A stretch of DNA of 27,786 nt from a virus. Positions 2,449 to 25,424 of this stretch are shown in pieces. A model generated the notes under the pieces. That model was not told the DNA's origin. It worked only from the letters and a program-made list of their open reading frames with translations, and searched no databases. How positions within the stretch are numbered: the stretch's first letter is position 1; every line of letters begins with the position of its first letter. The stretch is taken from the IMG/VR virus record IMGVR_UViG_3300043570_000663, positions 1 to 27,786 of that record. One strand, written 5' to 3'. The translations under genes and the position numbers were made by a program.

Positions 2449-2468
2449 ACCCCACCCATTTCATAGTT

Positions 2469-3148: not shown

Positions 3149-3157
3149 TATAATAAC

Positions 3158-3601: not shown

Positions 3602-3618
3602 GTTTTTCCTCCTATTAC

Positions 3619-3627
3619 ATTATATCA
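3619..3627 (-). promoter_or_regulatory. Extended -10 promoter candidate before fibre-tip gene
   Basis: The minus strand reads TGATATAAT, a perfect extended -10 (TGnTATAAT). A start site six or seven bases downstream would fall at the AGGAGG ribosome site of the next gene, giving a leader of only about 12 bases. No convincing -35 is present at 17 bases, which an extended -10 does not require. It overlaps the stop codon of the FN3-like gene. Confidence 0.45.
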
Positions 3628-10307: not shown

Positions 10308-10949
10308 TTAAACCTCTTCCAGGGTTACAGAGACATTCCAGAGATCCATATTAGTCCCACCACGTTTTTGAACAGAATATGAGAAATCAGATATATAGAC
10401 TTCCATTATTTGGCTATACTTATTTAAATTATTAAACTGGGTTTCGCCCTCTTGAAAGTTTTTATATTTATCATATGATAAGAATATCCAGAAAGGTCCT
10501 TTGTGGTTTTCATACCAGTCTAAAAGTTCTGCTCCGCCTGCTCCGCCATCTACTGTAAACTCTTGAGATGGGCTCTGACCTTTATACGGAGATAGTCCTG
10601 TTGCAATTTCAAAATCTGCAACATAAGGATATGCTCTTGATGGCAGGTTATCCCATGATGTAGTAATTGTCATCTTATCTGCAATATGATAAGATCTCAT
10701 TCTTCCATTAATGGTTCTTTCACGCTTCTCAATACGAGTAGGTTTAAACTCAATAGGCTGTCTATTGTGATCTGAGATTATTAAGAACTGGTCTATCTCT
10801 GAAGCTGTAGCATCTGGTGCATCAGTTCCTACTTCATATCCCGTTGGAACATAAAGACCATTTGACAGTGTGCCAGCATTATTAGACCATAGCATTGCCT
10901 GTGGTCTTTGATACCTGCGTCTTCCAGACATGTATGCTGTTGTTGCCAT
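10308..10949 (-). CDS. Distal tail protein (Dit-like) / minor tail protein
   Basis: 213 residues, starting at ATG 10949 inside the tape measure stop (TAATG). The gene between tape measure and hub in siphoviruses normally encodes the distal tail protein, a hexameric ring on which the hub sits. The sequence is beta-rich with a C-terminal MEVYISDFSYSV...DLWNVSVTLEEV pattern, which fits the last strands of tail-tube-like domains, and a short Arg-rich N-terminus (SGRRRYQRP). No enzymatic motif. The call rests on position, size and strand pattern, not on a recognised signature. Confidence 0.75.
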   Translation of the reverse strand: MATTAYMSGRRRYQRPQAMLWSNNAGTLSNGLYVPTGYEVGTDAPDATASEIDQFLIISDHNRQPIEFKPTRIEKRERTINGRMRSYHIADKMTITTSWDNLPSRAYPYVADFEIATGLSPYKGQSPSQEFTVDGGAGGAELLDWYENHKGPFWIFLSYDKYKNFQEGETQFNNLNKYSQIMEVYISDFSYSVQKRGGTNMDLWNVSVTLEEV

Positions 10950-13900
10950 TATCGTTGTCCTCTAATTCTTTGTCCATCAATATACTTAATCTTCTGCATT
11001 ACTGTGCTAGCAATATCGTCGGCATTTAAATTGTTACCGCTGACATTTACACTTAAACTATAATTATACACTGAAGAGTCTGTAGAAATACCGTCATTTA
11101 TTTTTGCTAGATTATTTGCACCATAGGCATCTACTGCTGACTTCTTAATAACAAATTCTCCTGGGGTAAGCATGCTTGAAATAGTGTCTTTATTTCCAAG
11201 GCCTGGAACAAGTCCTCCAGTTGCCATCATTAATCTATGTGTATCAGACTTGCTTGGGGTATAGTCTTCATCAATTAGTTTAGTTAATTTTTTTAATTTT
11301 GAAGCACTTATCTTAGACTCTATAATTTTTGGTATCTTTGGGTCAGGTAAAGAAACAGGTGGTATTGCTGTTGCTGGGCTGATTGCTGGAATTGAAATCG
11401 CATCAGCATTAACTGCTCTTAAAACATATTCATTTACATCTTTTGTTATTATTTCACCTTCACCTGGAACAGTATTTATTTGATGAATTCCTACTTGATT
11501 TTCATATCTTGATGCTGTTGTAGCTGCTGGTTTAAAGCTTTCTAGTATAAACTTTGTATTAGGGGCAATAATGCCCTCGTGACTTAACCCTTGGGATTCA
11601 GCAAATGCAGCAATGTCGGGTATTCCTTTTACGCCTTCGCCAAAGTTTATTACTGCTAAAGCGTCTGTTTGTCCTCCGCTAGTTCCACCAAATGCTGCAA
11701 TTTTTGCAGCAGCATCGTAATCATTAGTTATGGATCTAACTGTTGGAGATACAAAAGATTCTCCTATTTGTAAACCAGACAGCGCCTCTAAATCTACATC
11801 GCTAAGTCCACGATATGAAGTTGTTCCTTCTGGAATAATAAATTTTTCAACCAGACTGTTAATTGCAGCTTTTTGGTTGGGAAGATGACCAAGTAGCGGT
11901 TTTTCTAAATAATTTCTTAATGCAAGAACGTCTGCTGGTGGAATGCCAAATTTTTCTGCTTTATTTAATGTGGCTAATTCATGTTCATAATAGTCTCTAT
12001 CGCTCTTATACTTCCAATATGGGCTATCATTTGCGCTATGTTTATCAAAAAGTGCTTTTTCTGGAGTGGGTTCTGAACCGTAAAGTGCTTGGTATTTTGG
12101 CGGATGGGGATACGTTAGCCGTTCCCCACTCATTCGTATAGCAAACTCTTCTTCGGCTACCTCTTTTTGTAAATCATATAATTTAGCATAATCTGGATTT
12201 TCTTTTTCTGTAACTTTTAATTCTGTTGCTCTCTTATTATTCCAGCTTCTTCCATCTGCAATTAATGCTTCTACTTCTGGGGTTAAAGGTGTAGGTGGAG
12301 GAGTAGGAATTCCATCAGGCGTAAAGTTCTTTGGTTTAATTGCTCCCATATCAAGCAATTTTGCAAATAGAGCATCTTGCCCAGGATGGATTGCACCTTT
12401 ACCATGTAAGTCTGTTTTTAGTAATTGCTTAAGTGATTTTAGTGTCATTCCTTCTGGAAGCTTTGCTCCTGGAACAATTGAGTAAATTTCCTCGGCTACA
12501 TTTGCTCTATTAGGGCCATGACCAAGTGGCAGTCCCCCCTTTGCAATTCTTGTTGCCCCACCAATTTCATCTACTAATTTTGGGGGTAGGAAGGATGTAA
12601 ATTCATCAAACATGCCACCAATAGAAAGTGGTGTTGGAACTTGTTCTGGCAAAACATCTATTCTATATATACCAGCGTTGCTTCCCATAAATCCTGATGT
12701 GCCTGCGTTGCTACCTGCAAGATTTAAATGTCTACCTTGCTGCCCATAGGCTGTTGCCATTTTTGATGACATGCTCCAATATCCGCCAAGTTCGCTAAAT
12801 GCTTGAGTAGCTTTAAACATAGCAAGCTGTTGATTTGGATCTAGTCCGTGTGCCTCGGCATATGCTTTATTTGCAGATTTCATAAAATCTGGGACAACAG
12901 TTGCTAGATCATTTTTCCCAGCGAACGCCCCTTTTCCAAACGACCCTACTTTGTATAGAAAATCTTCTTTCGACATTCCTTGAACTGATGCATCGCCTTG
13001 CTTAGCTAAAATAGAATATGCTTCTTCCCAATAATAATGGTAGGCTTTAGCTAGATCTGTTGTTGGTGCGCTACCAAGAATAGCATGTGCATCTATCATT
13101 CCTTTAGCGCCTAATGTCATTTCTGGTAAAGCTCTTCCGTCTGCTTCAGCAAATTGAAGTGCTTTTCCTTGCAAGTTTCTAAGAATTGTTTTACTTGCTT
13201 TTGAAGGATTCATAACATTAACAACTTCAGGTTTAACAGGTGGAGCTGAAAGAGCAGCTCTAACAGGTGGAGCTGGAAGAGCAGCCATAACAGGTGGGAC
13301 TTCAGGGGCAGCATTGGCTACAGATATTGGAGCAGATTTTGCTGCTGCACGTGCCTTAGCTGCATTTAATAAACCTTCTGACCAATCTCCTGGAAGCCAG
13401 CCATCGTTCAAAGGTACTACTTCGTCCCCAATGCTATGTGCAAATTTATCTCCTGCTGGTGTTCTATAAGGACTATGCGTAATTGGAGAAATTGATTTAG
13501 CATAATTCCACATTTCTGTTCCAATAAGTTGACCTTGGTGTGGAGGAAGTACTTTTATACCTTCAACAACGTTAGTTATTTTATCCCAGCTTAGTTGGCC
13601 TATTTTTTCGCCATCTTTTGTTACATTTATAAAATTCAAATATGGATCTGATGTATCTACATTTAACGAGTATCCCTCTGGTAGTTTAGGTTTTGCTACA
13701 GGAACGTCTGCAATAACTGGAACTTCAGGGGCAGCAACCTTTGAAGTAGCGGTATAGGAATCTAAAAATTCTGATATATCAATACGACCCATATCTTCTG
13801 GAACTATTTTAGGGGCTAGTTTAACTGGAGTATACCTTACTGGCATTTTTAAGCCAACTTCATTAACAATGTCCCCTAAAACTCCAGTGTATTTGCTATC

Positions 13901-16900
13901 TAAAAATGCTTTCCAAATTTCGGAATCTGGTTTAACCCCTCCTGGATACATTCCAAATTCCTTTTGGAAATCATATCCCTTTATAAGACCTTTTCCACTA
14001 GATGCTTTTATTAAGCTAAGTAATGATAGCTTATATACATTTTCACCTGCACTTTCAAATGTTTCTTTTGTTCCTAAATAGTTTAATCTACCCATTGAAT
14101 CTGCTTTTCCAGACTTCCAACCCATGGGATCTAAAGTTTTCCCTGCTAAATTATCTGACCAGGATGCGTGTGTTGCATTCTTTAATAATTTAAAAGTTGC
14201 TAATTTTCCTATTCCTGCTTTACCTGTAGGTGTTTCTGGAACAACTTTTGAAGCAACAGCTGCAGCAGCAGGTTGATTTAATTTGGCTGATAGCTTAGTA
14301 AACATATCAATGCCCAAATCTTTTTCAACAAACTTTTTTACACCTTGAGGAATTACTTTGGCTGCAGCGTTTACTACTGGTTTTGCTAATTTTGCAATTG
14401 GAATAGGAATAACGGATGATCCAGCAATTAGGTTATCTCCAACACTAGACTTCATTTCTTGACCTGTAAGTCTAGCAATCGTCATTGCTAGAGGGGCCAC
14501 TGGCGATGGGCCACCATATTTCACTAAGTCTTGGATAGTCTTACCAATTGATGGTAGGCCAAAGAAGTTTGCTGTCTGCTCCCAATTTTCTTTTTTAAAG
14601 ATTTCTTTCCATCCCGAAGGATTTCCGTCTCTAGTTAATCCAGGACCATGCTGGTATCTGCCGTTACCTGTAGTCTGTCCAGATGTTGTATAACCACCTG
14701 GTGGAGTTGAAGAAGCACCGTATTTATGTTTATGACCTACTGGACCGCCCTTGTGTAAATATCCTTCATTTAATGCACTAAGCATATTCATGCCATATTT
14801 ATCTACCGCTGCTTTTCTGACAACAAATTCACCTGGAGTTAACATTGCTGGAACTGTATCAGTTCCCTTGCTAAATCCTCCAGCAGCAAACATCTCAGGA
14901 ATTAGTCCGCCATAATTATAATATCCCATTCCCTTTAATATTGCTGCTATTGTTTCAGGGTTCATTCCTTTAAGCTGAGGGTTTAAGAAAAGTCCTTCTG
15001 TGTAAGTTCCTTTAGGTCCAATTGTTCCAGGGTTTGGAGTTGGAGTTGGAGTTGGAGTTATAACGTTAGCGTTTGCTTCTAGCATACCTTCAGGGCTAAG
15101 AGCATATGCTTTTCTTGCTTCATTTAATTTTGCTCTTAATCCACTAATTATTGTGCTAGATTCTTGATTTTCAATAGCATTTGCTAATGCTTCTTCTGCT
15201 GCCGTTACTTTGGCTTTGGCTGCTGCTATTCTATCTGCTAATATTTTCTTATCAGCTTTTTCTCTATCTTCTAATTCTTTCTTTTCAGCTGCTAACTTTG
15301 CAGCATCAGCATCGGTTTGTTTTTTTATAGCATCAGCATAAAGAGCTGCAAGTTCTTTTGCTGCAGTTTTAGCAAGTCCTAGTTGTTTAGTAAAATCTAA
15401 TGCTGCTGCTTCTGCTGCTTTTAACCCAGCTTCTATTTTTGCAAACTCAGCCTTCATTGCTTCAGTAGCAGCGGCTATTTCTGCATCTTTAGCTTTTCTA
15501 AGAGCGTCTGCTTTTGCTTGAGCTGCTGCTAATGCATCTTGTGCCGTTTTTAAATTATCTTCTGCTTTTTTAAGATCTGCATTTAAACCAATCATCTCAT
15601 TTTTATGATCTGTTTGTGCTTTCTTGATTGCTGCTTCTCTTGCATCTTGTTTTTCTTGAATCTTATCTTCTTGTGTATTTATTGCTGCTTGCTGAACAGC
15701 TATAGCAGCATTCTTTGCTTCTATCTGTGTTTGAATTGCATATAGACCGTTGTTAACAGTTTGTCTAGATAATTCTAAAGCATATATTTGATCTTCTTTG
15801 TCTTTAATTGCTTTAATATATGCAAGTCTACCTTCACTATTTTCAATATTATAAATTTTTTCTTGTTTCTCTGCAATGTCTTTTTCTAGCGCTGCTCGTC
15901 GTACTTGAATTTCATAAGAAGCTCTTTCAATTGCATACTGTCTTGCAGCAATCTGATCTCTAGTTAATCCAGAAGAAGATTTGACTGCTTCAAGTTCTGC
16001 TTCTTTTGCTTTTCCTAGCGTTCCTTGTTGTGATCCCAAAGATTTTGCTGCTTGAGTTGCTCTAATGTCTTGTACTGCAGCAGCTGCTGCTGAAATATCA
16101 CCCTTACTTAAAGCATCTGCCAATCCAAGTTGTTGCTTTTGTTGTTCAACAATGTCTTGATTAAGCTCAGCAACTTTTGTTAGTGCGTCTTCTTGTACTT
16201 TATATTTATCGTTAATTGATTCAGCTATCTTATCCATTACCGCTAAGTCTTCACTTAGTTTAGAAGACTCATCTTGCATATCACTAAGTGGCAACTCAAA
16301 ATCAATTGAGATTTTTCTTTGAATTCCTTCTATTTCTTTTTGTATTTTTTCAACAGCACGAGTATATTGCATTTCGATTGTTCTGTTATATGATGCAATT
16401 TCTTGTTGAAACATTTCAATCGGTCTATTAAATTGTTCTTGAATTCTAACCTGTGTATCTGCTACAAACTTTTCTGCTCCCTCTAAAGATAAAGCGTTAG
16501 TGTCAAGGCCTCCGAGAGAATCTCCAAATCCCATTGCTACACTAATCTTTGAATCCATCTTTATGTCTTTAGCATCTTGTATTTTCTTAATTTCAGTGTT
16601 AAGATCTTTAATTTTTTGAACAAACCCAGCTGTATCGGTAGTGTATGCATCTTCTATATCTTCTACTGCTTTATCATATAGTTTGTTCTGAGCATCAACC
16701 TTGTCTGAAGCTTTGTCAAATATTGTTTGTAATCCATCTTCAACTTTAGTAACAGCTCCAGTAGCTGGGTCTATTGTAATCTTATCGTCAATTGTTGCTT
16801 GAATTTCATCAACGGCTTTATCTGCGCCTGCAATAATTGGGTCCCATTTAATTGCTATTCCTGCTTCAGTTGCTGCAATTATTTTTTGCATATTAGACAT

Positions 16901-19900
16901 TGCTCGATCAAATATGGATTGAACACTGCCAGCAATTTCTTCTATAGATCTTTTTAGATCAGAAATGTTTGCATTTACTTTGACCGTAGTTTTAATATTT
17001 GATAATCCAAGCTCTATATCTTTTTTAAGTTTGTCAACTTCTGGGGCTGCTGTTTTAGGATCTAGCATTTTCTTTACAGTATTAAGTAATGTTGGGCTAT
17101 CTCCTATTATTTTTAGGTCTTCTGCTGAGTAGTTAAATTTTGTTCTTGCCTTAGATAAAGTATTAAGGTCTTCATTTGCTTTGTCTAATTCCTTTTGAGA
17201 ATTATCAATAACTGATATTAATGCTCTATCTAAACCAAGAGTTTCATCTTTGGCTGCTTTTGCTGCAGCAGCCATTTCAAGCATCTTTTTCTTATCTATT
17301 TTTTTAGCATTAATAGCAACAGCTAGGTTAGCATCTGCTGTCATTTCAAGAGCAGTTGCAGTATCTACTCCTGCTGCTTTTAGTTTCTTAAATGCTGCAT
17401 CTTGGGCTACACTATCTTGAACAACTCTAATTTGAGCATCATGATATTCTCCAACAACCTTTTCATTAAAGGCTGCTTTTAATGCTACGCCTTGTTCAGT
17501 TAATACAACCTTACCTTTTTTAACACGCATATAGATATCACGAGTTTTATTGTCCATGCTCTCAAGCATGCCTATGAATTCTCTATTAAATCCACCCTTT
17601 GTACCAGCCATTAATTGTTGAGATACTCCAGCAAATTTTGTTATACCCTTGCCAGAAACAATCTTCATTAAATATGATAGGCTTCCCTCAGCATCAATTG
17701 AGGCATCACGAACAAACTTAAGTTTCTTAAGCATTTCATCTAGTGTGGTATCTCTTGGTGGTGGGATGACTGGATCATTAAGATTGTCGTCAATAATTTT
17801 TGTAGGGTCTGGCTTATCATAACCTTTTCCAATAAGTTTTGAAATAGTTGTAAGTCCTGTACCAGCTTCTGCTTTAAACGTTGGATCATTTGAGGCTATT
17901 GTATAATTAACAACAAGGCTTTTATTTATTGTTTCTTTTCCTTCTGAAAGTTCTGCCCAGTTATCTTTAACACCTTTAAATACTAATGGGTCTGTTCCAG
18001 CAAGTTCTTGTACTAGTTTAAAGTCTAGTTTCTCTGGTAAGTCTTTAATTGATGCTATTGCTCTTGTAGCATTAATTATTTGTGTAACACCATTTGCTTT
18101 TAGATTTAATTTTATCCCATACGCTTGTTCCATATTTGCAATTGCTGCAACTGCTTCTATGTCAGTATCAAAAGATTCTTTATTTTTGTTTACATAATTA
18201 AATAAAATTTCTACAGTTTTTGCATCTGCACCAGTCTTAGCAAAAAGGTCCATCATAACAGCAGTGTCAGCAAACCCTTGTTCATTTATTGTAAAATTAA
18301 TTACTCCTTCTAAGTTTTTATTTTCTGCAGAATACTCTAATATCTTTAATACTGTTGAGGCGCTTAGCTGTTTAGATGCAAAACCTAGCTGTATTGTCTT
18401 TTTAAATGGTGTATCTGAAAGCTCTGAAAGGTTATCTTTTGCTTGTCCTACAAATGCTTTAACTGCATCAGATGAATCTTTATATAAAACATCAATTGAT
18501 GCATTAATTGCTTTTGTAAAATCATCAGAGCCTAGCCCAGATCCAAGGGTCTGTACTTGCTTAAGTGTTTCTGCATTTGCAATATTTAGTTCATCAACTT
18601 TTGCTTTTTTCTGATTTTGAAGGTCAATAACTTCTTTTTCTGTTTTTGCATTTTTAATCTTTATATCATATTCTTGTTTTACACCATCTAGCAATTGTTG
18701 ATTTTGAGCTATTGCTTCTGCTCCAAGTTGAACAGCAGCTGCATCTAGTTTTGCATTTCTTGACTTAAATTCAGTTTCACCAAATGGTAGAACTCCTACT
18801 CCTGTAGCGCCAACTGCAATATCAATAGCCTTTTTCCAACCTGGCAAAGAATTCCAAACTGCCATGTCATTGGCACCAACTAATGCTTGTTCGAAAGCAT
18901 CTTTGACATTGGTGTATGTGTCTGCTTTTATTTTTAAAGCTATCTCTAATGGATTTTCATATAAGTTTGATCCATCAGGTCCTAGAAGTTTAACAAGATT
19001 ACCAGTAATTTTTGCTGGAATCTCATAACTACCAAGTTTTTGACCAAGAGCTGCTGCAATGCTTGCTGCTTGTTCTGTTGTTATAACGCCTTGAAGAACT
19101 GCCTGGCTAAGGCCTGTTGAAACATTTTTTGCAATTGCATCTGAGGTTAATCCAGATTTTGCAAGAATATCTATATCTCCTAATAAATTTTTTCCAAAAT
19201 CACTTTCAAGAAGATTTTGTCCAACTGTTCTTTGTGCTTCTGTTGTTCCTGAAACAATGTTGTCTCTTCTTTTTGATGCCTCTTCTGAAGCACTAACGGT
19301 GTCAGTTATTACAGATAAAGACTGAAGTTTTTTAGAAGTCATAGACATAGCATTTGCTAAGCCAATTCCTTCTTTTCTAGCATCTTCAATCTGCTTATTC
19401 ATCATTAGTACTGATACTCCTAATACCGCAATAGCTGCAACTGCTGCTACCCAAGGATTTGCAAGCATTGGAAGAAGTGCTACTATTCCTTGTATACCAA
19501 ATACAAAAGGCATTGCGGCAGTTGCTATTTCTCCAAGCTTTCCACCTGAGAATGCAGCCATCATTGTTAAGCCAGCAACAGCACCAGATGCAATATTTGC
19601 TTTATGACCAAGGTCTTTAAATCTTCCAGTTGTATTTTTGAATTCAGTGTTTAATGCATCAAATTGTTTTTTAAACTCAGCATCTGAAAGTCCAGCTCCT
19701 GGCATAGTAATTTTCATTCCGCTTGTATTTGGCTTTAGCAAACCAGCCAATGCATCAGCTTGAGAAATTCTGGCATCAGCAAATCCAGGACGAACAGTCT
19801 TTACTCTTGGAGCTTTTTGACCCTTTTTACCTTTTTTAGCTTTTGAACCCTGAACAACTTCTTCATCTTTTTTAAGTGGTGGTGCTATTTTTGAATCTCC

Positions 19901-22900
19901 TGGATCTCCAGAAGAAGACTTAATGTTTGCAGGTCTAGACTCTGTTTGTGGTTTTCTTGTTTTTCCAGTTTTTACATTTTCAATTTCTTCATCTGGTTTA
20001 ATTACAATAGATGTATGTCTTTTGTGTAATTCTCTCCAGTCAACTCCTTTAGCTTCCTCAATTCTTGTAAGCATATTTTCATAGTATGGTCTTTCTAGAG
20101 GATTTAAATTAAAATCTATTAAAGCTTGTTTTATTATGCCTTCTTGCCTGTTAAGTTCTGCAAGCATTTTGTCGTGGTAAACATCTGGAGTCATGCTCTT
20201 TGCAATGTCAACAGTTGCATTTCCAAACCATTGTGGAGATCTTGCAGCATTTGGACCTGAAACTCCACCCAAATTCTTTTCTGCTATTTCTTTTATTGAA
20301 GGAATATCCATAGTCAGATATCTTGGGCCAGATGCTTTATTTAATACTCCAGATCTTCCAGGATCTGTTAGTACACTTCCTCCAAGATTTCCCTTTTTAA
20401 GGTCTGTGTCTCCACGAACGCCTGCTGCAACTACTTGTGTAAAGTAATCATTTTCACTAAATGTTCTTGGAATTGTTGCTGGATCAAATGCTTCATTATA
20501 TGGAGACTCTAATGCAAATAGTTTTTTACCTGTTTTTGAATCTTCTATAACTCTTAGTGTTTGCTCTGGGGTGTCTAAACCAACTCTTCTTCCAATTTCT
20601 GTTAAACGTTGTTCTGCAAGAGCTATGTCTTCAGTCATCATAGGCTTTACAAATACTTGTGTGCCATCTGATTTTTTATATACTCCGCCTAAATGATTTG
20701 CTTCTTCGAAGCTGAAGCCTGAAGTTTTAGATATCTTTTCTCCGTACCTAGTAACTGGCTCATCTTTAAATCTACTATTTTTTACATTTTTATCAGTTTC
20801 TGCAAAGATTTTATCTTCTTTTGTCTGTGCTTTAACAGTTGCATCATCAGGGAATAGTTCAGCAATGGTTGGTCTACCGCCAGTTGCTGGATAAAAACCT
20901 GTATCAAATCTGTAGTCCATACCAGCAATTGTTGCGTGTGCTATTGCTTTTGTAGGATTTCTTTCTACATCTAATACAGCAGTAGCTCGCATTGCTTTGG
21001 CCAATGCAGCAGTATTTGGATGCTCTCCATCTACTAAACGTTGAACACTAGCTCTATCGGTTCCTCGTGCTTTTAGTTGATCATCTGTCATAGCTAAAAG
21101 ATCTTGACCAATACTACCCTTTACGGTATTTAAATAATTATTTGACCAACCTAACTCTGGAACAATATTTGCTGCTCTAAATATTTTATTTCCATCTGAA
21201 TCTACAGACTCAATAAGGTGTGCTTGTTCAAGTTGAAAATAACTCTTTTTTTGTCCTGGCGTAAGTTCAATACCACGCTCTTTAAGATATTTTTCAATTG
21301 CTTCTTGTTCTTGAATTTTGTTTGGATACCCTGCTTCTTTAGCTAGATCTGATATTTTACCTGATCTTGCAGAAGTTATGCCAGATCCTCTATACCCAGT
21401 TCCAATAACTAATCTTTTTTGTATTGAGCTAGCATTAAATTTTTGTCCTGGCTGAGATTTTTGATCAAATGCTTTTATTATTTTTTCTCTACTAAGAGTT
21501 GTTTGCTCTCCTGTTTTTGGATCTGTAAAAACATATGTATCTGCTTTTTCTCCAGGAACAAACTTATCTATAAGTTTTCTAAGTCCATCTGCGCCATCTG
21601 GAGTTCTAGCGTTATACTCTCTATCAAAAAGTGTAACTTTACTTTTTTCTGTTTTATAGTGTTCTTTTATTTCATCAATAATTAATTTTTTAGTTGCTGC
21701 AGATGTTCCTTTTGCTAATAATTTTCTTGCAGCCTTTAGGTCTCCATCCTCTACTGCTTTTCTTAACTTTGTTGCAGAAACATCGTCTTCGCTACCTGGT
21801 ACTCTAGGTACTTCTACTTTTTCTAAAGTGATCCCGTGTTTTTCTGCTGCTAGATCAAAAACTGTGCTTTCCATACGGTCTGAGCCAAGTAGTACTTTTA
21901 CTTCTGTAATCCCTCTATTTTTTAAATCTTCCATTACAGCAAATGGATCTGTTGCAACAACTGGTGGCTTTCCTACAGATTCTTCTATTTGTCTAACTCT
22001 AGTGTCTAAAGAAACAACACCTTTTTTTGCTTTAGTTCCTGCTGATGTGTACTGTATAAATTCGGATCCTTCGGCAACGGCAAGAGATTTTCCTTGATTA
22101 GCAATATCTTCATGTGCAGTAGTAAATGGTTGGTGGGCTCCAAAGGCTACAACAGCTGTTGTGCCTTTACTAAACCCTTGAAGTTTGCCATTAACCATTG
22201 CATCAATGATTGGTTGGTATGCAGGGTTTTGTGCAACATCTCTTGGAATAACGGCTTCTCCAGGAGTAAGCATAGAAGGTACTGTATCTTTAGTACCTAT
22301 TCCTGGAACATAAGTTGATCCAGTAGAGAACTTCTTTGAAGTAGGTCCCTTAAATCCTGGTGACATCATTCCTGGATTTGCTCTTGCAAATGTTAGTGCT
22401 GCTGTAGTTGCTTGTACATAAGCATTACGAAGAGCATGGACAGCGGTAGCTTCTAAGTTAAATGATTGTGTAAGTCTTGTATGGGCTTGGTTAAGAGATG
22501 CTGCTACAGTTGCTGCTTCTAGTTGTTCTGCATTTAGGTATGATGTCTGTTGAGACAATACCGTTGTATTTCCACTAAGTTTTAAGAACCCTGAACGAAG
22601 AGCAAGGAATAGTTTAATGATGTTAGCTGCACCGTTAGCAACTAAACCAAATGTCATTAATAGTGTTGGTCCAAGTATACCTACTAGTGTAGTTGCAACA
22701 ACTATAAACTTTTTAGTACCGTCGCCAAGACCATCGAACTTCTTTAATATCTCTGCTGCAAATTTTATTATTGGTGTTAAAGCCTCAAGGAAAGCTTTTC
22801 CAATTGGCATAATCGAAACTTTTAAATCTTCTACAGCTTGTTTAAAGTCTACGCCTACTGCATCTTCAACTCTTTTTAATTCTCGCTCTGACATAATAGC

Positions 22901-24334
22901 AAGCTCTTCAACAGATGCTTCAGTTAATTTTAAAACCTTACTTGCTTGTGTTCCATCTGTAGTAATATTTTTAAATAATGTTGATAAACGAGCAAACTGG
23001 AATTTACCAAATAGTTGCTCAATTGCTCTTGAACGATTTAGTGGATCTAATGTATCTAGTGCTTTTGCAAACCCTACTACCGTACCTTGAAGATCGCCAA
23101 CATTTCCTTCAACAATTCCATTAATATTTACGCCAAGATCCATAAGCATTGCTGATGCTTTTTTACTTGGATTAATTAAAGCAGCAAGTCCAGACTTTAA
23201 TGCGTTAGCTCCTTCAGAGGCGTTAATTCCTCCTTCTTTCATAGCAGTTAAGAAAAATGCTAAATCTTCTACGTCTCCACCAAGTTGTTGAATTACTGGA
23301 CCAGCTTTTGGAATTGCAATTGTTAAATCTTCAATAGATACAACGGTTTGGTTTTCAACTGCGTTAAGAAAATTAATTTTACCTGCAAGTTGATCAGCAG
23401 CTATTCCAAATGCATTTGTTAATGAGATCGTTGTTTCTAGTGATTGTTGTTGTTCTACACCGCCAAGTACAGCAAGTCGGGTAGCTTCAGCTACTTGAGC
23501 AGTAAGCTCTGCTCCAGTTTTACCCATTGCTGCTGCATCAGCAGCCATCTTCATTGTATCTGTAACAGCTATGCCATACTTAGTAAAACTCTTTGCAAGT
23601 GATTCTATCTCTTTAATAGCCTTGTCTGTTTCTTCAGCACTTGTAAATATGTCTCCATACACACGCTTAAATCTAATTGCTTGTTCTTCCATTTCCATAA
23701 ATGTTTTAGAGGCAATGCTGCCAATGTACATTAATGGAACACTGAAACCAACCATAAGCTGACGACCAGCCCATTGTGTATTCTTACCAAAGTTAAGAAG
23801 GGATGTTGATCCTTGCTTAACTAGTTGATTAAATATTGCTTGTTTTTGTCCTGCAACTGCTGCTTGATTTCCAAAATCTTTCATATTCAAAGTTGTTGGA
23901 GTAATAGACATTGCCTTAGTTGCGCCAGATGCATCACGACCCATCTTAATATATTGGGTCTGCATCTTTCTTACACGTTCTTCTGCTACCTTGCCAATTG
24001 TGTCAAATTCTGCTCTAAACAATTTACCAAATGATTTTGTAGAAGCACCCGCATAACGGAAATACTCACGCATAGAGAGTTTGTTGTTCTCTAGTGCGTG
24101 AGTAAATGACTCCGTAGATGTTCTGACTAATCCCATTTGTGCATGGAATTGACCAGTTGCATTTATAGAATTAAGAAGGTTTGTCTGTAAACCTTTTTGT
24201 GCTGCAGCACTTGCTGCACTATTTTTTGCTATAGATGCATGAAATGTTGCTATCTGACGTTGAAGTGCTTTTAGTTCAGCTAATGCTGCTGACGAATCAA
24301 TGTGTATGCCAATATTAGCATTTACATCAGCCAT
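10949..24334 (-). CDS. Giant composite tape measure protein with embedded enzyme-like domains
   Basis: 4461 residues in one open frame; most siphovirus tape measures are about 700-2000. It sets tail length and is ejected ahead of or with the DNA. ATG 24334 has GAGGTG seven bases upstream. Layout: helical N-terminus (1-130); phage minor tail/tape measure core (about 180-530, with the FLTAMKEGGINASEGANALKS region); hydrophobic helices 541-580; repeat 1 (M688); nucleotidyltransferase-like 720-905; unknown 905-1190; kinase-like 1195-1420; basic linker; hydrophobic 1580-1646; unknown helical 1650-2400; coiled coil 2400-3085; TP repeat 3093-3100; repeat 2 (M3164); unknown 3210-3530; GNAT-like 3549-3650; unknown 3700-3925; ADP-ribosyltransferase-like 4145-4265; repeat 3 (M4388). 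The tape measure call is firm from position and core; the domain calls are from motifs read by eye. Confidence 0.93.
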   Translation of the reverse strand: MADVNANIGIHIDSSAALAELKALQRQIATFHASIAKNSAASAAAQKGLQTNLLNSINATGQFHAQMGLVRTSTESFTHALENNKLSMREYFRYAGASTKSFGKLFRAEFDTIGKVAEERVRKMQTQYIKMGRDASGATKAMSITPTTLNMKDFGNQAAVAGQKQAIFNQLVKQGSTSLLNFGKNTQWAGRQLMVGFSVPLMYIGSIASKTFMEMEEQAIRFKRVYGDIFTSAEETDKAIKEIESLAKSFTKYGIAVTDTMKMAADAAAMGKTGAELTAQVAEATRLAVLGGVEQQQSLETTISLTNAFGIAADQLAGKINFLNAVENQTVVSIEDLTIAIPKAGPVIQQLGGDVEDLAFFLTAMKEGGINASEGANALKSGLAALINPSKKASAMLMDLGVNINGIVEGNVGDLQGTVVGFAKALDTLDPLNRSRAIEQLFGKFQFARLSTLFKNITTDGTQASKVLKLTEASVEELAIMSERELKRVEDAVGVDFKQAVEDLKVSIMPIGKAFLEALTPIIKFAAEILKKFDGLGDGTKKFIVVATTLVGILGPTLLMTFGLVANGAANIIKLFLALRSGFLKLSGNTTVLSQQTSYLNAEQLEAATVAASLNQAHTRLTQSFNLEATAVHALRNAYVQATTAALTFARANPGMMSPGFKGPTSKKFSTGSTYVPGIGTKDTVPSMLTPGEAVIPRDVAQNPAYQPIIDAMVNGKLQGFSKGTTAVVAFGAHQPFTTAHEDIANQGKSLAVAEGSEFIQYTSAGTKAKKGVVSLDTRVRQIEESVGKPPVVATDPFAVMEDLKNRGITEVKVLLGSDRMESTVFDLAAEKHGITLEKVEVPRVPGSEDDVSATKLRKAVEDGDLKAARKLLAKGTSAATKKLIIDEIKEHYKTEKSKVTLFDREYNARTPDGADGLRKLIDKFVPGEKADTYVFTDPKTGEQTTLSREKIIKAFDQKSQPGQKFNASSIQKRLVIGTGYRGSGITSARSGKISDLAKEAGYPNKIQEQEAIEKYLKERGIELTPGQKKSYFQLEQAHLIESVDSDGNKIFRAANIVPELGWSNNYLNTVKGSIGQDLLAMTDDQLKARGTDRASVQRLVDGEHPNTAALAKAMRATAVLDVERNPTKAIAHATIAGMDYRFDTGFYPATGGRPTIAELFPDDATVKAQTKEDKIFAETDKNVKNSRFKDEPVTRYGEKISKTSGFSFEEANHLGGVYKKSDGTQVFVKPMMTEDIALAEQRLTEIGRRVGLDTPEQTLRVIEDSKTGKKLFALESPYNEAFDPATIPRTFSENDYFTQVVAAGVRGDTDLKKGNLGGSVLTDPGRSGVLNKASGPRYLTMDIPSIKEIAEKNLGGVSGPNAARSPQWFGNATVDIAKSMTPDVYHDKMLAELNRQEGIIKQALIDFNLNPLERPYYENMLTRIEEAKGVDWRELHKRHTSIVIKPDEEIENVKTGKTRKPQTESRPANIKSSSGDPGDSKIAPPLKKDEEVVQGSKAKKGKKGQKAPRVKTVRPGFADARISQADALAGLLKPNTSGMKITMPGAGLSDAEFKKQFDALNTEFKNTTGRFKDLGHKANIASGAVAGLTMMAAFSGGKLGEIATAAMPFVFGIQGIVALLPMLANPWVAAVAAIAVLGVSVLMMNKQIEDARKEGIGLANAMSMTSKKLQSLSVITDTVSASEEASKRRDNIVSGTTEAQRTVGQNLLESDFGKNLLGDIDILAKSGLTSDAIAKNVSTGLSQAVLQGVITTEQAASIAAALGQKLGSYEIPAKITGNLVKLLGPDGSNLYENPLEIALKIKADTYTNVKDAFEQALVGANDMAVWNSLPGWKKAIDIAVGATGVGVLPFGETEFKSRNAKLDAAAVQLGAEAIAQNQQLLDGVKQEYDIKIKNAKTEKEVIDLQNQKKAKVDELNIANAETLKQVQTLGSGLGSDDFTKAINASIDVLYKDSSDAVKAFVGQAKDNLSELSDTPFKKTIQLGFASKQLSASTVLKILEYSAENKNLEGVINFTINEQGFADTAVMMDLFAKTGADAKTVEILFNYVNKNKESFDTDIEAVAAIANMEQAYGIKLNLKANGVTQIINATRAIASIKDLPEKLDFKLVQELAGTDPLVFKGVKDNWAELSEGKETINKSLVVNYTIASNDPTFKAEAGTGLTTISKLIGKGYDKPDPTKIIDDNLNDPVIPPPRDTTLDEMLKKLKFVRDASIDAEGSLSYLMKIVSGKGITKFAGVSQQLMAGTKGGFNREFIGMLESMDNKTRDIYMRVKKGKVVLTEQGVALKAAFNEKVVGEYHDAQIRVVQDSVAQDAAFKKLKAAGVDTATALEMTADANLAVAINAKKIDKKKMLEMAAAAKAAKDETLGLDRALISVIDNSQKELDKANEDLNTLSKARTKFNYSAEDLKIIGDSPTLLNTVKKMLDPKTAAPEVDKLKKDIELGLSNIKTTVKVNANISDLKRSIEEIAGSVQSIFDRAMSNMQKIIAATEAGIAIKWDPIIAGADKAVDEIQATIDDKITIDPATGAVTKVEDGLQTIFDKASDKVDAQNKLYDKAVEDIEDAYTTDTAGFVQKIKDLNTEIKKIQDAKDIKMDSKISVAMGFGDSLGGLDTNALSLEGAEKFVADTQVRIQEQFNRPIEMFQQEIASYNRTIEMQYTRAVEKIQKEIEGIQRKISIDFELPLSDMQDESSKLSEDLAVMDKIAESINDKYKVQEDALTKVAELNQDIVEQQKQQLGLADALSKGDISAAAAAVQDIRATQAAKSLGSQQGTLGKAKEAELEAVKSSSGLTRDQIAARQYAIERASYEIQVRRAALEKDIAEKQEKIYNIENSEGRLAYIKAIKDKEDQIYALELSRQTVNNGLYAIQTQIEAKNAAIAVQQAAINTQEDKIQEKQDAREAAIKKAQTDHKNEMIGLNADLKKAEDNLKTAQDALAAAQAKADALRKAKDAEIAAATEAMKAEFAKIEAGLKAAEAAALDFTKQLGLAKTAAKELAALYADAIKKQTDADAAKLAAEKKELEDREKADKKILADRIAAAKAKVTAAEEALANAIENQESSTIISGLRAKLNEARKAYALSPEGMLEANANVITPTPTPTPNPGTIGPKGTYTEGLFLNPQLKGMNPETIAAILKGMGYYNYGGLIPEMFAAGGFSKGTDTVPAMLTPGEFVVRKAAVDKYGMNMLSALNEGYLHKGGPVGHKHKYGASSTPPGGYTTSGQTTGNGRYQHGPGLTRDGNPSGWKEIFKKENWEQTANFFGLPSIGKTIQDLVKYGGPSPVAPLAMTIARLTGQEMKSSVGDNLIAGSSVIPIPIAKLAKPVVNAAAKVIPQGVKKFVEKDLGIDMFTKLSAKLNQPAAAAVASKVVPETPTGKAGIGKLATFKLLKNATHASWSDNLAGKTLDPMGWKSGKADSMGRLNYLGTKETFESAGENVYKLSLLSLIKASSGKGLIKGYDFQKEFGMYPGGVKPDSEIWKAFLDSKYTGVLGDIVNEVGLKMPVRYTPVKLAPKIVPEDMGRIDISEFLDSYTATSKVAAPEVPVIADVPVAKPKLPEGYSLNVDTSDPYLNFINVTKDGEKIGQLSWDKITNVVEGIKVLPPHQGQLIGTEMWNYAKSISPITHSPYRTPAGDKFAHSIGDEVVPLNDGWLPGDWSEGLLNAAKARAAAKSAPISVANAAPEVPPVMAALPAPPVRAALSAPPVKPEVVNVMNPSKASKTILRNLQGKALQFAEADGRALPEMTLGAKGMIDAHAILGSAPTTDLAKAYHYYWEEAYSILAKQGDASVQGMSKEDFLYKVGSFGKGAFAGKNDLATVVPDFMKSANKAYAEAHGLDPNQQLAMFKATQAFSELGGYWSMSSKMATAYGQQGRHLNLAGSNAGTSGFMGSNAGIYRIDVLPEQVPTPLSIGGMFDEFTSFLPPKLVDEIGGATRIAKGGLPLGHGPNRANVAEEIYSIVPGAKLPEGMTLKSLKQLLKTDLHGKGAIHPGQDALFAKLLDMGAIKPKNFTPDGIPTPPPTPLTPEVEALIADGRSWNNKRATELKVTEKENPDYAKLYDLQKEVAEEEFAIRMSGERLTYPHPPKYQALYGSEPTPEKALFDKHSANDSPYWKYKSDRDYYEHELATLNKAEKFGIPPADVLALRNYLEKPLLGHLPNQKAAINSLVEKFIIPEGTTSYRGLSDVDLEALSGLQIGESFVSPTVRSITNDYDAAAKIAAFGGTSGGQTDALAVINFGEGVKGIPDIAAFAESQGLSHEGIIAPNTKFILESFKPAATTASRYENQVGIHQINTVPGEGEIITKDVNEYVLRAVNADAISIPAISPATAIPPVSLPDPKIPKIIESKISASKLKKLTKLIDEDYTPSKSDTHRLMMATGGLVPGLGNKDTISSMLTPGEFVIKKSAVDAYGANNLAKINDGISTDSSVYNYSLSVNVSGNNLNADDIASTVMQKIKYIDGQRIRGQR
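11090..11219 (-). repeat. Tape measure repeat 3 (MLTPGEF type)
   Basis: Encodes a copy of a repeat centred on MLTPGEFV (M4388), preceded by GGLVPGLG and an Asp-Thr, and followed by an AVDAYG...LAKIN pattern. It matches repeat 2 closely (MLTPGEF, A-V-D-x-Y-G, L, N, G). It is the last ordered unit before the C-terminus and follows the ADP-ribosyltransferase-like domain by about 125 residues. The motif is seen in many phage tape measures; its role is not known to me. Confidence 0.85.
11540..11902 (-). other. ADP-ribosyltransferase-like domain in the tape measure
   Basis: Residues about 4145-4265. The order is that of the R-S-E class of mono-ADP-ribosyltransferases: R4175 in TSYRGL, S4196 in SFVSPT (the STS-type strand), and E4253 in SHEGIIAPNTKF (the ExE loop before the conserved last strand). 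The residue two before the catalytic glutamate is S4251, where active enzymes usually have E or Q, so activity on arginine may be lost or altered. Known phage enzymes of this class, such as T4 Alt, are injected with the DNA and modify host RNA polymerase; a similar role here is inference. Confidence 0.7.
12540..13206 (-). other. Unknown globular domain in tape measure, weakly ADP-ribosyltransferase-like
   Basis: Residues about 3710-3930, bounded by a Pro/Ala-rich linker and another Pro-rich linker. A GGYWSMSSKMATAYGQQG segment followed by GIYRIDV is reminiscent of the strand-helix-strand of an ADP-ribosyltransferase fold (a 'ftts...a..y' pattern before a hydrophobic strand). I do not see the full R/H-S/Y-E triad, so this is a weak suggestion. 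It reads as a folded domain, not coiled coil. Confidence 0.3.
13234..13314 (-). repeat. Three imperfect 27-base tandem units in tape measure linker
   Basis: Units at 13234-13260, 13261-13287 and 13288-13314 each begin TAACAGGTGG on the plus strand. They encode a nine-residue Pro/Ala repeat (APPVxAALP-type) in the linker between the GNAT-like domain and the next module. The first two units differ at only a few bases. Replication slippage is the likely source; the unit number probably varies between related phages. Confidence 0.85.
13385..13690 (-). other. GNAT-like acetyltransferase domain in the tape measure
   Basis: Residues about 3549-3650, between Pro-rich linkers. The core is GIKVLPPHQGQLIGTEMW, which aligns with the acetyl-CoA binding loop of GNAT proteins (pattern HRRQGIATAL); here H3599-Q3600-G3601-Q3602-L3603-I3604-G3605, so the first loop glycine is Leu. 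It is followed by THSPYRTPAGDKFAHSIG (H3620), matching the 'hS..RT..G..fa...G' strand-helix of phage-encoded GNAT-like domains. It would transfer an acyl group to an unknown target; catalytic competence is uncertain because of the altered loop. Confidence 0.6.
14762..14883 (-). repeat. Tape measure repeat 2 (DTVPAMLTPGEF)
   Basis: Encodes GGFSKGTDTVPAMLTPGEFV (M3164) followed by an AAVDKYGMNMLSALNEG-type helix, nearly the same as repeat 3. It sits after the coiled coil and TP linker and opens the C-terminal cluster of enzyme-like modules. The DTVPxMLTPGE core is also shared with repeat 1. Confidence 0.88.
15035..15058 (-). repeat. Perfect (TGGAGT)4 hexanucleotide repeat
   Basis: Four exact plus-strand TGGAGT units encode Thr-Pro four times (residues 3093-3100) on the minus strand. 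It forms a stiff linker between the coiled coil and the C-terminal region of the tape measure. Slippage here would change the linker by two residues per unit without a frameshift. Confidence 0.92.
15080..17137 (-). other. Long coiled-coil region of the tape measure
   Basis: Residues about 2400-3085 are almost free of Pro and Gly and very rich in Ala, Lys, Glu, Asp and Gln, with heptad-like spacing of Leu/Ile/Ala. This is the classic ruler-like part. A KTAADALAAAQA-type segment and many 'AAKAAE' runs lie at 2850-3080. It is the strongest candidate for the tail-length determinant, in contrast to the globular modules on either side. Confidence 0.8.
20075..20752 (-). other. HipA/PI3K-like kinase domain in the tape measure
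   Basis: Residues about 1195-1420. A nucleotide-binding hairpin GGVYKKSDGTQVFVKP runs from G1216 to K1230, followed by a helix with E1241 (pattern 'A.AEQRL..IGRRVGLDTPE'). The catalytic loop is GDTDLKKGN with D1311 and N1316 (the HipA-type DxxxxN spacing), and a metal-binding Asp lies in LTMDI (D1343). The order hairpin, Glu helix, catalytic loop, Asp fits the HipA/PI3K-like kinase fold. Target unknown. The remaining part (ENMLTRIEEAKG..) is helical. Confidence 0.6.
21620..22177 (-). other. HIGH-motif nucleotidyltransferase-like domain in the tape measure
   Basis: Residues about 720-905. The opening strand AVVAFGAHQPFTTAHEDI contains the T/HxGH-type motif of the cytidylyl/nicotinate-nucleotidyltransferase superfamily (H741; H734 lies in the preceding loop, and Ala stands where the third motif residue is usually Gly). 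It is followed by VKVLLGSDRM, matching the 'GSDR' strand of the family, and by DVSATKLRKAVEDGDL (S853), the ISxT/S-type motif. The three motifs occur in the right order and spacing. Substrate and target unknown. Confidence 0.65.
22238..22312 (-). repeat. Tape measure repeat 1 (DTVPSMLTPGE)
   Basis: Encodes YVPGIGTKDTVPSMLTPGEA (M688), then a diverged helical part. It shares the GxGxxDTVPxMLTPGE core with repeats 2 and 3, and precedes the nucleotidyltransferase-like domain by about 30 residues. The second half has lost the AVDxYG pattern, so this copy is the oldest or most altered. Confidence 0.85.
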
Positions 24335-24352: not shown

Positions 24353-24682
24353 TTAGTTATTTGCAAGTACTGTATTAAGCAAAGCGTTTGCATCTGAAAG
24401 TTTAACTCCAGAAGCTGCTTCAATAATGTTATATACAGTTGGTAAATCTAGAACTTCTTCTAATGCAGCAATGTCCTCTGCTAGTTCTGGTTTGTATTGC
24501 TTCATAGCAATCTGCACACATTCAACAAGAATGTTCATTGACTTCTCGTTGTTGTCTGCTACAGCTGCCACCTGTTCAAACTTACTCATAAATGGACGGA
24601 GCAAAGAAATCTTAAGTGGACGTACCTTAATCTTTGTACCATCAATCAGAGTTAGTTCTGTACCCTCTTGTGTATTTGCCAT
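24353..24682 (-). CDS. Short tail assembly chaperone (G-like)
   Basis: 109 residues. Tail assembly chaperones coat the tape measure during tail building. The gene lies directly before the tape measure (18-base gap), where the chaperone belongs. It has an ATG at 24682 with a strong AGGAGG site. Residues 8-96 are homologous to the N-terminal domain of the long chaperone just upstream: GTELTLIDGTKIKVRPLKIS / LVECVQIAMKQYKPE / LPTVYNIIEAASGVKL match the long form. It lacks the C-terminal extension, so it acts as the G part alone. No slippery-site frameshift is needed because the long form is a separate gene. Confidence 0.85.
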   Translation of the reverse strand: MANTQEGTELTLIDGTKIKVRPLKISLLRPFMSKFEQVAAVADNNEKSMNILVECVQIAMKQYKPELAEDIAALEEVLDLPTVYNIIEAASGVKLSDANALLNTVLANN

Positions 24683-24731: not shown

Positions 24732-25424
24732 TCAGGTTAGGTTTTCGTAATCTAATCCCATGCCAATTCCAAAGCCAGCTTTTTGTGCGTTTACTCCTTG
24801 AAGTGATAAAACATCATTAGAGTCTCCAGTTTGTCCACCACTAAAGACTCTTGCTTTCATGTCTTCCCACTCTTTTTGTCCTCTGTCTTTTCCGCTTTCT
24901 GCGTCAAGGTCAACACCTTGCATAGCAGCAAGAAATTTCTTTTCTGAATAGTCTAGATCTCTTACTGCTTCTAACGTAATCATTAGTTCTGACATAGATA
25001 GAGATCTTTCTAGTTCTTCGTAATCTTTCCATATACCCAGCAAAAATACTTCAGACTCTAGTTTAGCTAAGTCTAATGTATCCCAGGTTTCCCCACTTTT
25101 TTCTGCTTGGTTCTTTACAGGTTCTTCAGATTTTTTATTTATCTTAATCCCAGCAGATATGTCTAGTACCTTATATATTGTTGGCATGTCAACATTGTCT
25201 TCTACATCTTCTACTGTTTTAGATATCTCAGGACAATATTGTTTCATGCAAACTCTTACACATTCTACAAGGGTACCAATAGCCTCATCATCATTTTTGG
25301 CATTTTTAATATCATCAAATGCCACCATGAACTCTCTAAGATACTTGATCTTAAGTGGAGATATTTCTAGCTCTGTCCCATTAAATAAATGAACATTTTC
25401 AGTCTTATATACTTTAGTTGCCAT
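24732..25424 (-). CDS. Long tail assembly chaperone (GT-like)
   Basis: 230 residues. The N-terminal domain (about 1-100) is a paralogue of the 109-residue gene. The C-terminal part (about 115-230) carries WDTLDLAKLESEVFLLGIWKDYEELERSLSM and YSEKKFLAAMQGVDLD, a pattern typical of the T-part of tail assembly chaperones. In most siphoviruses this long product is made by a -1 ribosomal frameshift from the short gene; here it is a free-standing gene placed first. The ATG at 25424 has no clear ribosome site, but a TGGTAGAAT -10 ends nine bases upstream, which suggests a leaderless mRNA. It follows the major tail gene terminator. Confidence 0.85.
   Translation of the reverse strand: MATKVYKTENVHLFNGTELEISPLKIKYLREFMVAFDDIKNAKNDDEAIGTLVECVRVCMKQYCPEISKTVEDVEDNVDMPTIYKVLDISAGIKINKKSEEPVKNQAEKSGETWDTLDLAKLESEVFLLGIWKDYEELERSLSMSELMITLEAVRDLDYSEKKFLAAMQGVDLDAESGKDRGQKEWEDMKARVFSGGQTGDSNDVLSLQGVNAQKAGFGIGMGLDYENLT

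What the first reader, a model, noticed from the sequence alone, without database searches (positions are those of the whole stretch)
10949..24334. Giant tape measure protein fused to at least four enzyme-like modules
One unbroken 4461-codon frame combines a normal tape measure core, two hydrophobic regions and a coiled coil with nucleotidyltransferase-like, kinase-like, GNAT-like and ADP-ribosyltransferase-like domains. The modules occur in two clusters (about 720-1420 and 3549-4265). Since tape measures pass into the host ahead of the DNA, this looks like a 'polyvalent' virion effector: a ruler carrying a set of host-modifying enzymes. Polyvalent proteins are described for phage and conjugative elements, but I know of no tape measure with this set.
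Basis: partly seen in the sequence, partly recalled or inferred. Interest (0 to 1): 0.9.

Follow-up and report, generated by a model that had tools for sequence, protein, structure and literature searches.

The report
Phage tail ruler carrying swappable enzymes
A virus of bacteria appears to have turned the protein that measures its tail into a carrier for interchangeable enzyme modules, probably delivered to the host cell at the very start of infection, and its relatives carry different sets of modules on the same carrier.

Summary
The 4461-codon frame is real (minus strand, 10949-24334) and is also found, identical or nearly so, in two other IMG/VR contigs. It is a TP901-family tape measure in an ordinary siphovirus tail operon. 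A nucleotidyltransferase (residues 722-900) passes its Pfam cut-off. An atypical kinase (1181-1440) is supported by an AlphaFold model (Z 11.7 to CotH kinase) and invariant catalytic residues. The GNAT-like and ADP-ribosyltransferase-like modules of cluster 2 rest on motifs and weak profile links only; their structure prediction failed. I compared 149 distinct complete tape measures of the family (1178-4461 aa). Length variation is concentrated at two docks: the loop between two hydrophobic segments, and a C-terminal site marked by a repeated 40-residue motif (xMLTPGExVI). Some modules occur in different clades at different docks, and a relative with a 97% identical core lacks one whole module. 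Delivery into the host is inferred, not shown. The best-matching isolates examined (Streptomyces phages Bmoc and Coruscant) carry an M23 peptidase near the C-terminus instead. I file it as a polyvalent-type tape measure: a new variant of a known kind.

The parts
10949..24334 (-). giant tape measure protein, 4461 aa
   Evidence: TIGR01760 E 7e-26
22355..24334 (-). N-terminal tape measure core, residues 1-660; 74-100% identical in the 80 loci kept from the first scan, 61% and about 40% to the cores of the two other clades
22598..22714 (-). hydrophobic segment 1 (541-579); a segment at this place in 149 of 149 complete tape measures
22181..22306 (-). MLTPGE motif copy 1 (677-718), at the start of dock 1
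21635..22171 (-). nucleotidyltransferase module (722-900): GAHQPFTTAH at 732, LLGSD at 815, SATKLR at 853
20858..21460 (-). module M2 (959-1159), function unknown, mostly helical in the model; lies in a stretch (901-1180) with dN/dS 0.99
20015..20794 (-). atypical kinase module KIN (1181-1440); K1230, E1241, D1309, N1316, D1324
19388..19531 (-). hydrophobic segment 2 (1602-1649), at the end of dock 1
15110..19612 (-). central ruler and coil (about 1575-3075); 54-61% identical to L083, the lowest of the segments compared
14756..14881 (-). MLTPGE motif copy 2 (3152-3193), at the start of dock 2
14261..14764 (-). linker module Ca (3191-3358), also in L092, L093, L094
13700..14257 (-). module Cb (3360-3545), unknown; absent from the relative with a 97% identical core (L083/L087, one contig)
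13379..13678 (-). GNAT-like module (3553-3652), HQGQLIG at 3599
12335..13201 (-). module ART_B (3712-4000), ART-like by eye only; homologues in tape measures of another clade
11405..12283 (-). module ART_A (4018-4310), R-S-E type ART-like: R4175, S/T block from 4193, E4253
11090..11206 (-). MLTPGE motif copy 3 (4377-4415), at the end of dock 2
10952..11227 (-). conserved C-terminal piece (4370-4461), dN/dS 0.05
25496..26134 (-). Ig-domain protein family match, probable major tail protein
   Evidence: phrog_2175 E 2e-32; synteny with Bmoc
24732..25424 (-). probable tail assembly chaperone 1
   Evidence: phrog_10504, synteny with Bmoc
24353..24682 (-). probable tail assembly chaperone 2
   Evidence: phrog_10504, synteny with Bmoc
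10308..10949 (-). protein following the tape measure, minor tail protein by position
5790..10307 (-). minor tail protein, 1505 aa
   Evidence: phrog_10359 E 6e-61

Best explanation
This is a tape measure protein that doubles as a carrier of exchangeable enzymes. Shown: a conserved core and C-terminus hold two docks where different modules are gained, lost and moved. Dock 1 is the loop between two hydrophobic segments and starts with motif copy 1. Dock 2 lies after the coil, between motif copies 2 and 3. Inferred: the protein sits in the tail lumen, leaves ahead of the DNA, its hydrophobic segments insert in or cross the host membrane, and the enzymes act in or on the host at the start of infection. 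In the window the set would be a nucleotidyltransferase and an atypical kinase (dock 1) and probable acetyltransferase and ADP-ribosyltransferase domains (dock 2). Most likely role: modify host proteins or NAD-linked metabolism to blunt defence and redirect transcription. Dock 2 may descend from the slot that holds murein hydrolases in ordinary tape measures.
For: Core family and synteny. Length 1178-4461 aa over 149 distinct complete tape measures. Distance from the second motif to the C-terminus: 91 of 119 are 76-116 aa, 28 of 119 are 338 aa or more, none between; all 18 with three or more motif matches are in the long group. Of 69 catalogued module instances, 19 lie in the loop between the two hydrophobic segments, 39 after the second motif, and the other 11 in the C-terminal part (5 in L091, which has one motif match; 6 LysM copies just before the last motif); none lies in the first 660 residues. 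The kinase module is in dock 1 in 21 proteins of the window's clade but in the C-terminal part in 4 of another clade. ART_A and ART_B also recur in other clades. A linker module stands before six module families; 12 of 20 copies end within 30 residues of the next catalogued module, which is one of four families. dN/dS of nucleotidyltransferase 0.23 and kinase 0.18 is near the core's 0.13. Kinase fold Z 11.7, with the residues read as catalytic invariant in 22 of 22 sequences. BFVD has six matches to the cluster 1 model at E <= 1e-3, among them phage proteins named tape measure, ADP-ribosyltransferase (two) and portal. Two isolates carry an M23 peptidase near the C-terminus.
Against: No experiment shows virion incorporation, delivery or activity. 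Cluster 2 could not be modelled and no ART or GNAT profile passed a cut-off. ART_A and ART_B have dN/dS 0.76 and 0.70, and the stretch with M2 0.99, which is weak constraint or fast diversification. Many relatives carry wall-related modules (LysM, OmpA, and CHAP-like and M15-like by motif), so part of the cargo probably serves entry, not host modification. 106 of 149 complete tape measures carry none of the catalogued modules. The nucleotidyltransferase and GNAT modules were each found in one further phage only (L083). In one clade (core91) only 21 of 48 have two motif matches, so the motif rule is not universal.
Confidence: 0.62

Rival explanations
1. Entry-only machine: the modules are wall- or membrane-remodelling and structural domains that help the tail cross the envelope, as murein hydrolases in tape measures do; the enzyme resemblance is old ancestry without host-modifying activity.
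For: LysM and OmpA domains (Pfam) and CHAP-like and M15-like modules (by motif) occur at the docks of relatives; two Streptomyces phage isolates have an M23 peptidase near the C-terminus.
Against: The window itself has no wall-hydrolase match. Kinase and nucleotidyltransferase keep their motif residues and show purifying selection; neither class is known to me to act on murein (recalled).
Confidence: 0.2
2. Intracellular late-stage or post-lysis toxin: the modules act in the producing cell before assembly, or against eukaryotic grazers that eat infected cells (Trojan horse idea for VIP2-like ARTs of freshwater phages, PMC6802176), and the tape measure is only a convenient fusion partner.
For: PMC6802176 (passages) reports 24 freshwater phages with ART toxins and repeats this proposal. 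ART-like modules (five families by eye) are the most varied group catalogued here.
Against: The set includes kinase, GNAT-like and nucleotidyltransferase domains, classes that PMC5512222 lists for phage-host conflict; tape measures are virion parts. Immunity genes were not looked for.
Confidence: 0.1
3. The tape measure is cut during assembly and the modules are removed or released as separate proteins; the fusion is a way of making stoichiometric amounts, not of delivery.
For: Some tape measures are processed (recalled: lambda gpH). Zincin-like peptidase motifs occur at some relatives' docks (by eye), and PMC5512222 proposes such processing for polyvalent proteins (passages).
Against: The window protein has no HExxH. 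The C-terminal piece has the lowest dN/dS of the segments compared (0.05), which fits an intact chain but does not prove it.
Confidence: 0.15

Closest known systems
Polyvalent proteins of phages and conjugative elements (Iyer et al. 2017, PMC5512222)
   Same: Several enzyme domains in one phage polypeptide; the paper lists ARTs, kinases, GNATs and Pol-beta nucleotidyltransferases as its protein-modifying classes and zincin-like peptidases as hub (passages).
   Different: The word 'tape' does not occur in that paper's main text. Here the carrier is a tape measure; the nucleotidyltransferase is of the CTP_transf_like type, not Pol-beta; the kinase model has helices after the catalytic loop, whereas the paper's kinases lost the C-terminal subdomain.
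Tape measures with murein hydrolase domains (Streptomyces phages Bmoc and Coruscant)
   Same: Homologous core (31-32% identity), same gene order around it, an enzyme domain about 100-190 residues before the C-terminus, and a weak match to the boundary motif further upstream (E 3e-5 and 6e-5).
   Different: One M23 peptidase instead of a multi-enzyme set; 2110 and 2133 aa; none of the 16 module profiles tried matched at E <= 1.
MuF fusions with ART toxins (MuF-VIP2 in Microbacterium phages, PMC7302621)
   Same: Virion protein fused to an ART-type effector (passages).
   Different: Head-associated protein rather than tail ruler; one effector.
Mosaic tape measures (Smug et al. 2023, PMC10684548)
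   Same: Reports sequence mosaicism in tape measures (passages).
   Different: They say that they could not confirm a genuine recent case; here a relative with a 97% identical core lacks one whole module.

Membership tests
TP901-type phage tape measure | match to the curated family above its cut-off | tested here: met
   TIGR01760 91 bits against 28.8; PF10145 85 against 33
TP901-type phage tape measure | position after major tail protein and two chaperones, before minor tail genes | tested here: met
polyvalent proteins | two or more enzyme domains in one phage polypeptide | tested here: met
   nucleotidyltransferase and kinase fold
polyvalent proteins | packaged and delivered with the DNA | not testable with these tools
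   inferred from tape measure biology
polyvalent proteins | zincin-like peptidase as common partner (not obligatory) | tested here: not met
   no HExxH in the window protein; in the paper only about 36% have it, so this does not exclude membership; seen by motif in relatives
atypical (CotH/HipA/PI4K-like) kinase fold | fold match well above background with catalytic Lys, Glu, Asp, Asn, Asp conserved | tested here: met
   Z 11.7, rmsd 4.0, 215 aligned (which gives 7 to 8 as the usual best Z of models without a clear match); residues invariant in 22 of 22
R-S-E ADP-ribosyltransferase | profile or fold match | tested here: inconclusive
   no PF03496 match in 17 of 17 records, but the control was over the cut-off in 0 of 14 genomes too; no useful PDB match; model failed; motif resemblance only
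GNAT acetyltransferase | profile match above cut-off | tested here: inconclusive
   PF00583 12.4 bits against 20.7; hhalign to GNAT_B 79%, itself unproven
tape measure with murein hydrolase | murein hydrolase domain in the chain | tested here: not met
   no such family in P0001 at E <= 1 (HMMER's filters drop many weak matches)

The most novel reading that the evidence does not exclude
These phages have a plug-in effector system: a tape measure with two standard docks, a repeated boundary motif and a transferable linker, into which lineages load and swap host-modifying enzymes, a siphovirus counterpart of polymorphic toxins or T6SS cargo effectors. The window's set may link NAD supply (the nucleotidyltransferase, if of the NMN adenylyltransferase type) with NAD-using ARTs.
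Probability: 0.4. Interest if true: 0.9.

Novelty: new variant of a known kind. Interest (0 to 1): 0.77.

Why it matters
If right, a tail structural protein is an evolvable delivery vehicle, and the dock boundaries predict where unknown effector families sit. Of 18 cargo pieces scanned, 14 had no Pfam match above a cut-off or at E <= 0.05 at all; the ten modules tried had no PHROG at E <= 0.001, and those tried against isolate phage records had no match. So the docks are a way to find new phage effectors. It would also give clear recent cases of domain exchange in tape measures.

Tried and rejected
PDB searches with A3, A4, A5, A6, A7, A8, A9 and the nucleotidyltransferase gave nothing of use. 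Among them, the ART_A match to an ATP-binding protein (E 0.004) and the nucleotidyltransferase match to an ankyrin design (E 0.0015) were rejected as short or repeat-driven. Foldseek rows of retroviral integrase for model 1, which top the list, were rejected (TM-scores 0.05 to 0.18). Pfam hits under their cut-offs in pieces of L012, L035, L094, L096 and L126 were rejected; APH in L132 (18.3 bits against 23.2) fits the second kinase-like family but is under cut-off too. hhalign between the ART-like families found no link, so I do not claim that they are one family; the names ART_A to ART_E, ZINC, CHAP and M15 are my labels by eye. PADLOC found nothing at E <= 0.1 for two proteins. No relative of the kinase or the core was confirmed in the genome collection of 84,980 species; that scan is pattern-based and may miss distant ones. 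tblastn in 50,697 phage records found no match for one kinase (L028), KIN2 (L091), ART_E (L273) at E <= 0.01 or cluster 2 at E <= 1e-3. Host: not settled; the best-listed matches of helicase and core are Streptomyces phages (39% and 31%), but Mycobacterium, Staphylococcus, Gordonia and other phages match as well. PMC10202952, PMC7824862 and PMC10240207 were looked at as passages and gave no tape measure with such a set.

Limits and dropped rows: the search for related loci keeps the best 80 per scan (596, 586 and 595 relatives confirmed, overlap between scans not checked), and 10-kb flanks make the largest tape measures look incomplete, which biases against giants. Of 249 loci with a core match, some from one contig, 178 were complete and 149 distinct by exact sequence; near-identical ones remain, and the window's own protein is among them as L084. 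The shortest (L245, L063) may be broken frames. For one search I left out L001, L003, L082, L085, L086, L087, L089, L095 and L175 as repeats, and exact duplicates; for L264, L265, L268, L269, L274 and L275. The distance count uses 119 of 149; 30 with fewer than two motif matches were dropped. The motif and module profiles were built from these proteins themselves, so their E-values there are optimistic. That 68 of 69 instances have a motif upstream says little, because copy 1 stands near residue 677 in most; I use instead. The linker seed overlapped the start of ART_B in L273. dN/dS is a Nei-Gojobori estimate on one pair with low dS in some modules (0.03-0.14); the ruler's value may be inflated by misalignment and recombination, and a 51-codon linker gave 1.6.

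Full report
What is there. The frame 10949-24334 lies on the minus strand and encodes 4461 aa without a stop. The window is an IMG/VR virus record of 27,786 bases. Its DNA is identical to L084 over 17,721 bases, the whole gene included, and 99.99% identical to L002 over 14,114 bases; these are contigs of two metagenomes. Neighbouring genes form a siphovirus tail operon, and a DnaB-like helicase and a DNA primase lie at the low-coordinate end. The best-listed isolates are Streptomyces phages of Stanwilliamsviridae; the two examined have the same gene order around the tape measure. The helicase's best-listed matches are Streptomyces phages too, though many other phages match.

Anatomy. Residues 1-660 are the tape measure core. 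Hydrophobic segments lie at 541-579 and 1602-1649. A motif of about 40 residues, of the kind GTxDTVPAMLTPGEFVI and what follows, occurs at 677, 3152 and 4377. Cluster 1 (722-1440) lies in the loop between the two hydrophobic segments; cluster 2 (3191-4310) lies between motif copies 2 and 3.

Cluster 1. The nucleotidyltransferase passes Pfam's cut-off and resembles cyanophage cytidyltransferases at about 28% identity. Three motif blocks are present (their reading as family motifs is recalled). Its part of the model is poor. The kinase was modelled with 26 sequences; 22 of the 26 ten-residue blocks of that part have pLDDT 80 or more. VIA-align gives Z 11.7 to CotH kinase, 10.5 to CtkA and about 9 to HipA, PI4K-II and FAM20C. 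Foldseek alone had no PDB match at E <= 1e-3. The residues that a kinase needs (K1230, E1241, D1309, N1316, D1324; roles recalled) are invariant in 22 of 22 sequences. In BFVD, Foldseek has six matches at E <= 1e-3 to the whole model, the best a tape measure protein (E 8.5e-21); two are named ADP-ribosyltransferase, one portal protein, and two have no name. The aligned part is not given there. Module M2 between the two enzymes has no known function.

Cluster 2. The model failed. GNAT: Pfam match under cut-off and 79% hhalign probability to a module of three other tape measures. ART_A: an R, an S/T block and an E in an ART-like setting (recalled pattern); the S/T block and the E are invariant in 10 of 10 aligned sequences, the R by eye because the aligner misplaced it in four of ten. 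ART_B is ART-like by eye only. A dock module of other tape measures, ART_E, which the window lacks, has R-G, S-x-S and E-x-E invariant in 6 of 6 sequences, the clearest ART signature that I saw in the family. None of these gave a profile match of use.

Comparison. The three cores are 61% and about 40% identical to each other. Of 249 loci with a core match, 178 hold a complete tape measure and 149 are distinct, the window's own included; lengths run from 1178 to 4461 aa with median 2216. Segment 1 is found in 149 of 149 and a second segment in 136 of 149; the loop between them varies from 520 to 1486 aa. The distance from the second motif to the C-terminus is two-peaked: 91 of 119 lie at 76-116 aa and 28 of 119 at 338 aa or more, with none between. 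All 18 proteins with three or more motif matches are in the long group. In one of these (L012) the extra copy lies in dock 1. In the core91 clade motif 1 stands later, near residue 910, and only 21 of 48 have two matches.

Exchange. Fourteen module profiles, from seeds that I chose, gave 69 instances (thirteen of them at least one) in 43 of 149 complete proteins: 21 of 47, 18 of 54 and 4 of 48 in the three clades. Of the 69, 19 lie in the loop between the segments and 39 after the second motif; the other 11 also lie near the C-terminus (5 in L091; 6 LysM copies just before the last motif), and none lies in the first 660 residues. The kinase is in the dock-1 loop of 21 proteins of the window's clade and in the C-terminal part of 4 proteins of another clade (a few are near-duplicates). 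ART_A occurs in 10 and ART_B in 13 of 228 proteins, in three and two of the clades. Each of 15 ORFs from the ART_A and ART_B scans that I checked carries a form of the boundary motif by a loose pattern; six of them are contigs seen before. The relative L083/L087, one contig, 97% identical in the core, lacks residues about 3360-3535 while both flanks align. The nucleotidyltransferase is in 3 of 220 proteins, two of them the window's own phage. A linker of about 60 residues occurs as 20 copies in 18 of 228 proteins; the next catalogued module belongs to six families in all, and 12 of 20 copies end within 30 residues of it.

Selection. Between the window and L083, dN/dS is 0.13 for the core, 0.23 nucleotidyltransferase, 0.18 kinase, 0.42 GNAT, 0.70 ART_B, 0.76 ART_A, 0.99 for 901-1180 with M2, and 0.05 for the C-terminus. 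The central ruler is only 54% identical, while nucleotidyltransferase, kinase and GNAT are 97-98% identical, so these are better kept than the ruler. The ART values speak against strong constraint.

How it most likely works. The core and the C-terminus keep the assembly function while the docks take cargo. The protein would ride in the tail tube and leave ahead of the DNA; the enzymes would then act in or on the host. This last part is inference from tape measure biology. In Bmoc and Coruscant a peptidase M23 lies about 100-190 residues before the C-terminus (E 4e-25 and 8e-25), so dock 2 may be an old hydrolase slot. LysM and OmpA domains, and CHAP-like and M15-like modules, in relatives fit that.

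Known or new. Papers were read as passages only. The polyvalent-protein paper (PMC5512222) lists the same broad enzyme classes, but 'tape' does not occur in its main text; the same holds for the NAD survey PMC9503650, which stresses head packaging and finds components of its NAD-ADP-ribose network in 16% of siphoviruses. PMC10684548 reports mosaic tape measures without a confirmed recent case. MuF-ART fusions are in PMC7302621. The paper searches, in an open-access library that lacks most subscription journals, listed no paper that I recognised from title and abstract start as describing a tape measure with such a set. I rate it a new variant of a known kind.

Noticed in passing
L091, L094, L096, L101, L260, L270, L273: Other giant tape measures with quite different cargo: LysM and OmpA (Pfam), and by eye CHAP-like, M15-like, zincin-like, a second kinase-like family (KIN2) and several ART-like families.
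   Followed up: partly
18 proteins, e.g. L273 residues 1592-1658, L097 2112-2174: A linker of about 60 residues (WFQRYVS...GDxLSAAxLPLNFMGMG) often sits directly upstream of different modules, like a sorting or pre-toxin domain.
   Followed up: partly
L096 and L103, C-terminal dock: OmpA-family domain (Pfam E 3e-15 and 1e-16) inside a tape measure.
   Followed up: no
window 24353-24682 and 24732-25424: Both probable tail assembly chaperones match the same family (phrog_10504), as if duplicated.
   Followed up: no
window 17755-19428 against L083: The start of the ruler has no nucleotide match to a relative that is 94% identical on the high-coordinate side: probably a recombined stretch inside the gene.
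   Followed up: no
Foldseek in BFVD lists proteins named ADP-ribosyltransferase (Mycobacterium phage Onyinye, an uncultured phage) and portal protein, perhaps sharing the kinase-like fold in other virion proteins.
   Followed up: no
window 20795-21634 (residues 901-1180): The stretch with module M2 has dN/dS near 1 between close relatives, and relatives have unlike sequences at the same place.
   Followed up: no
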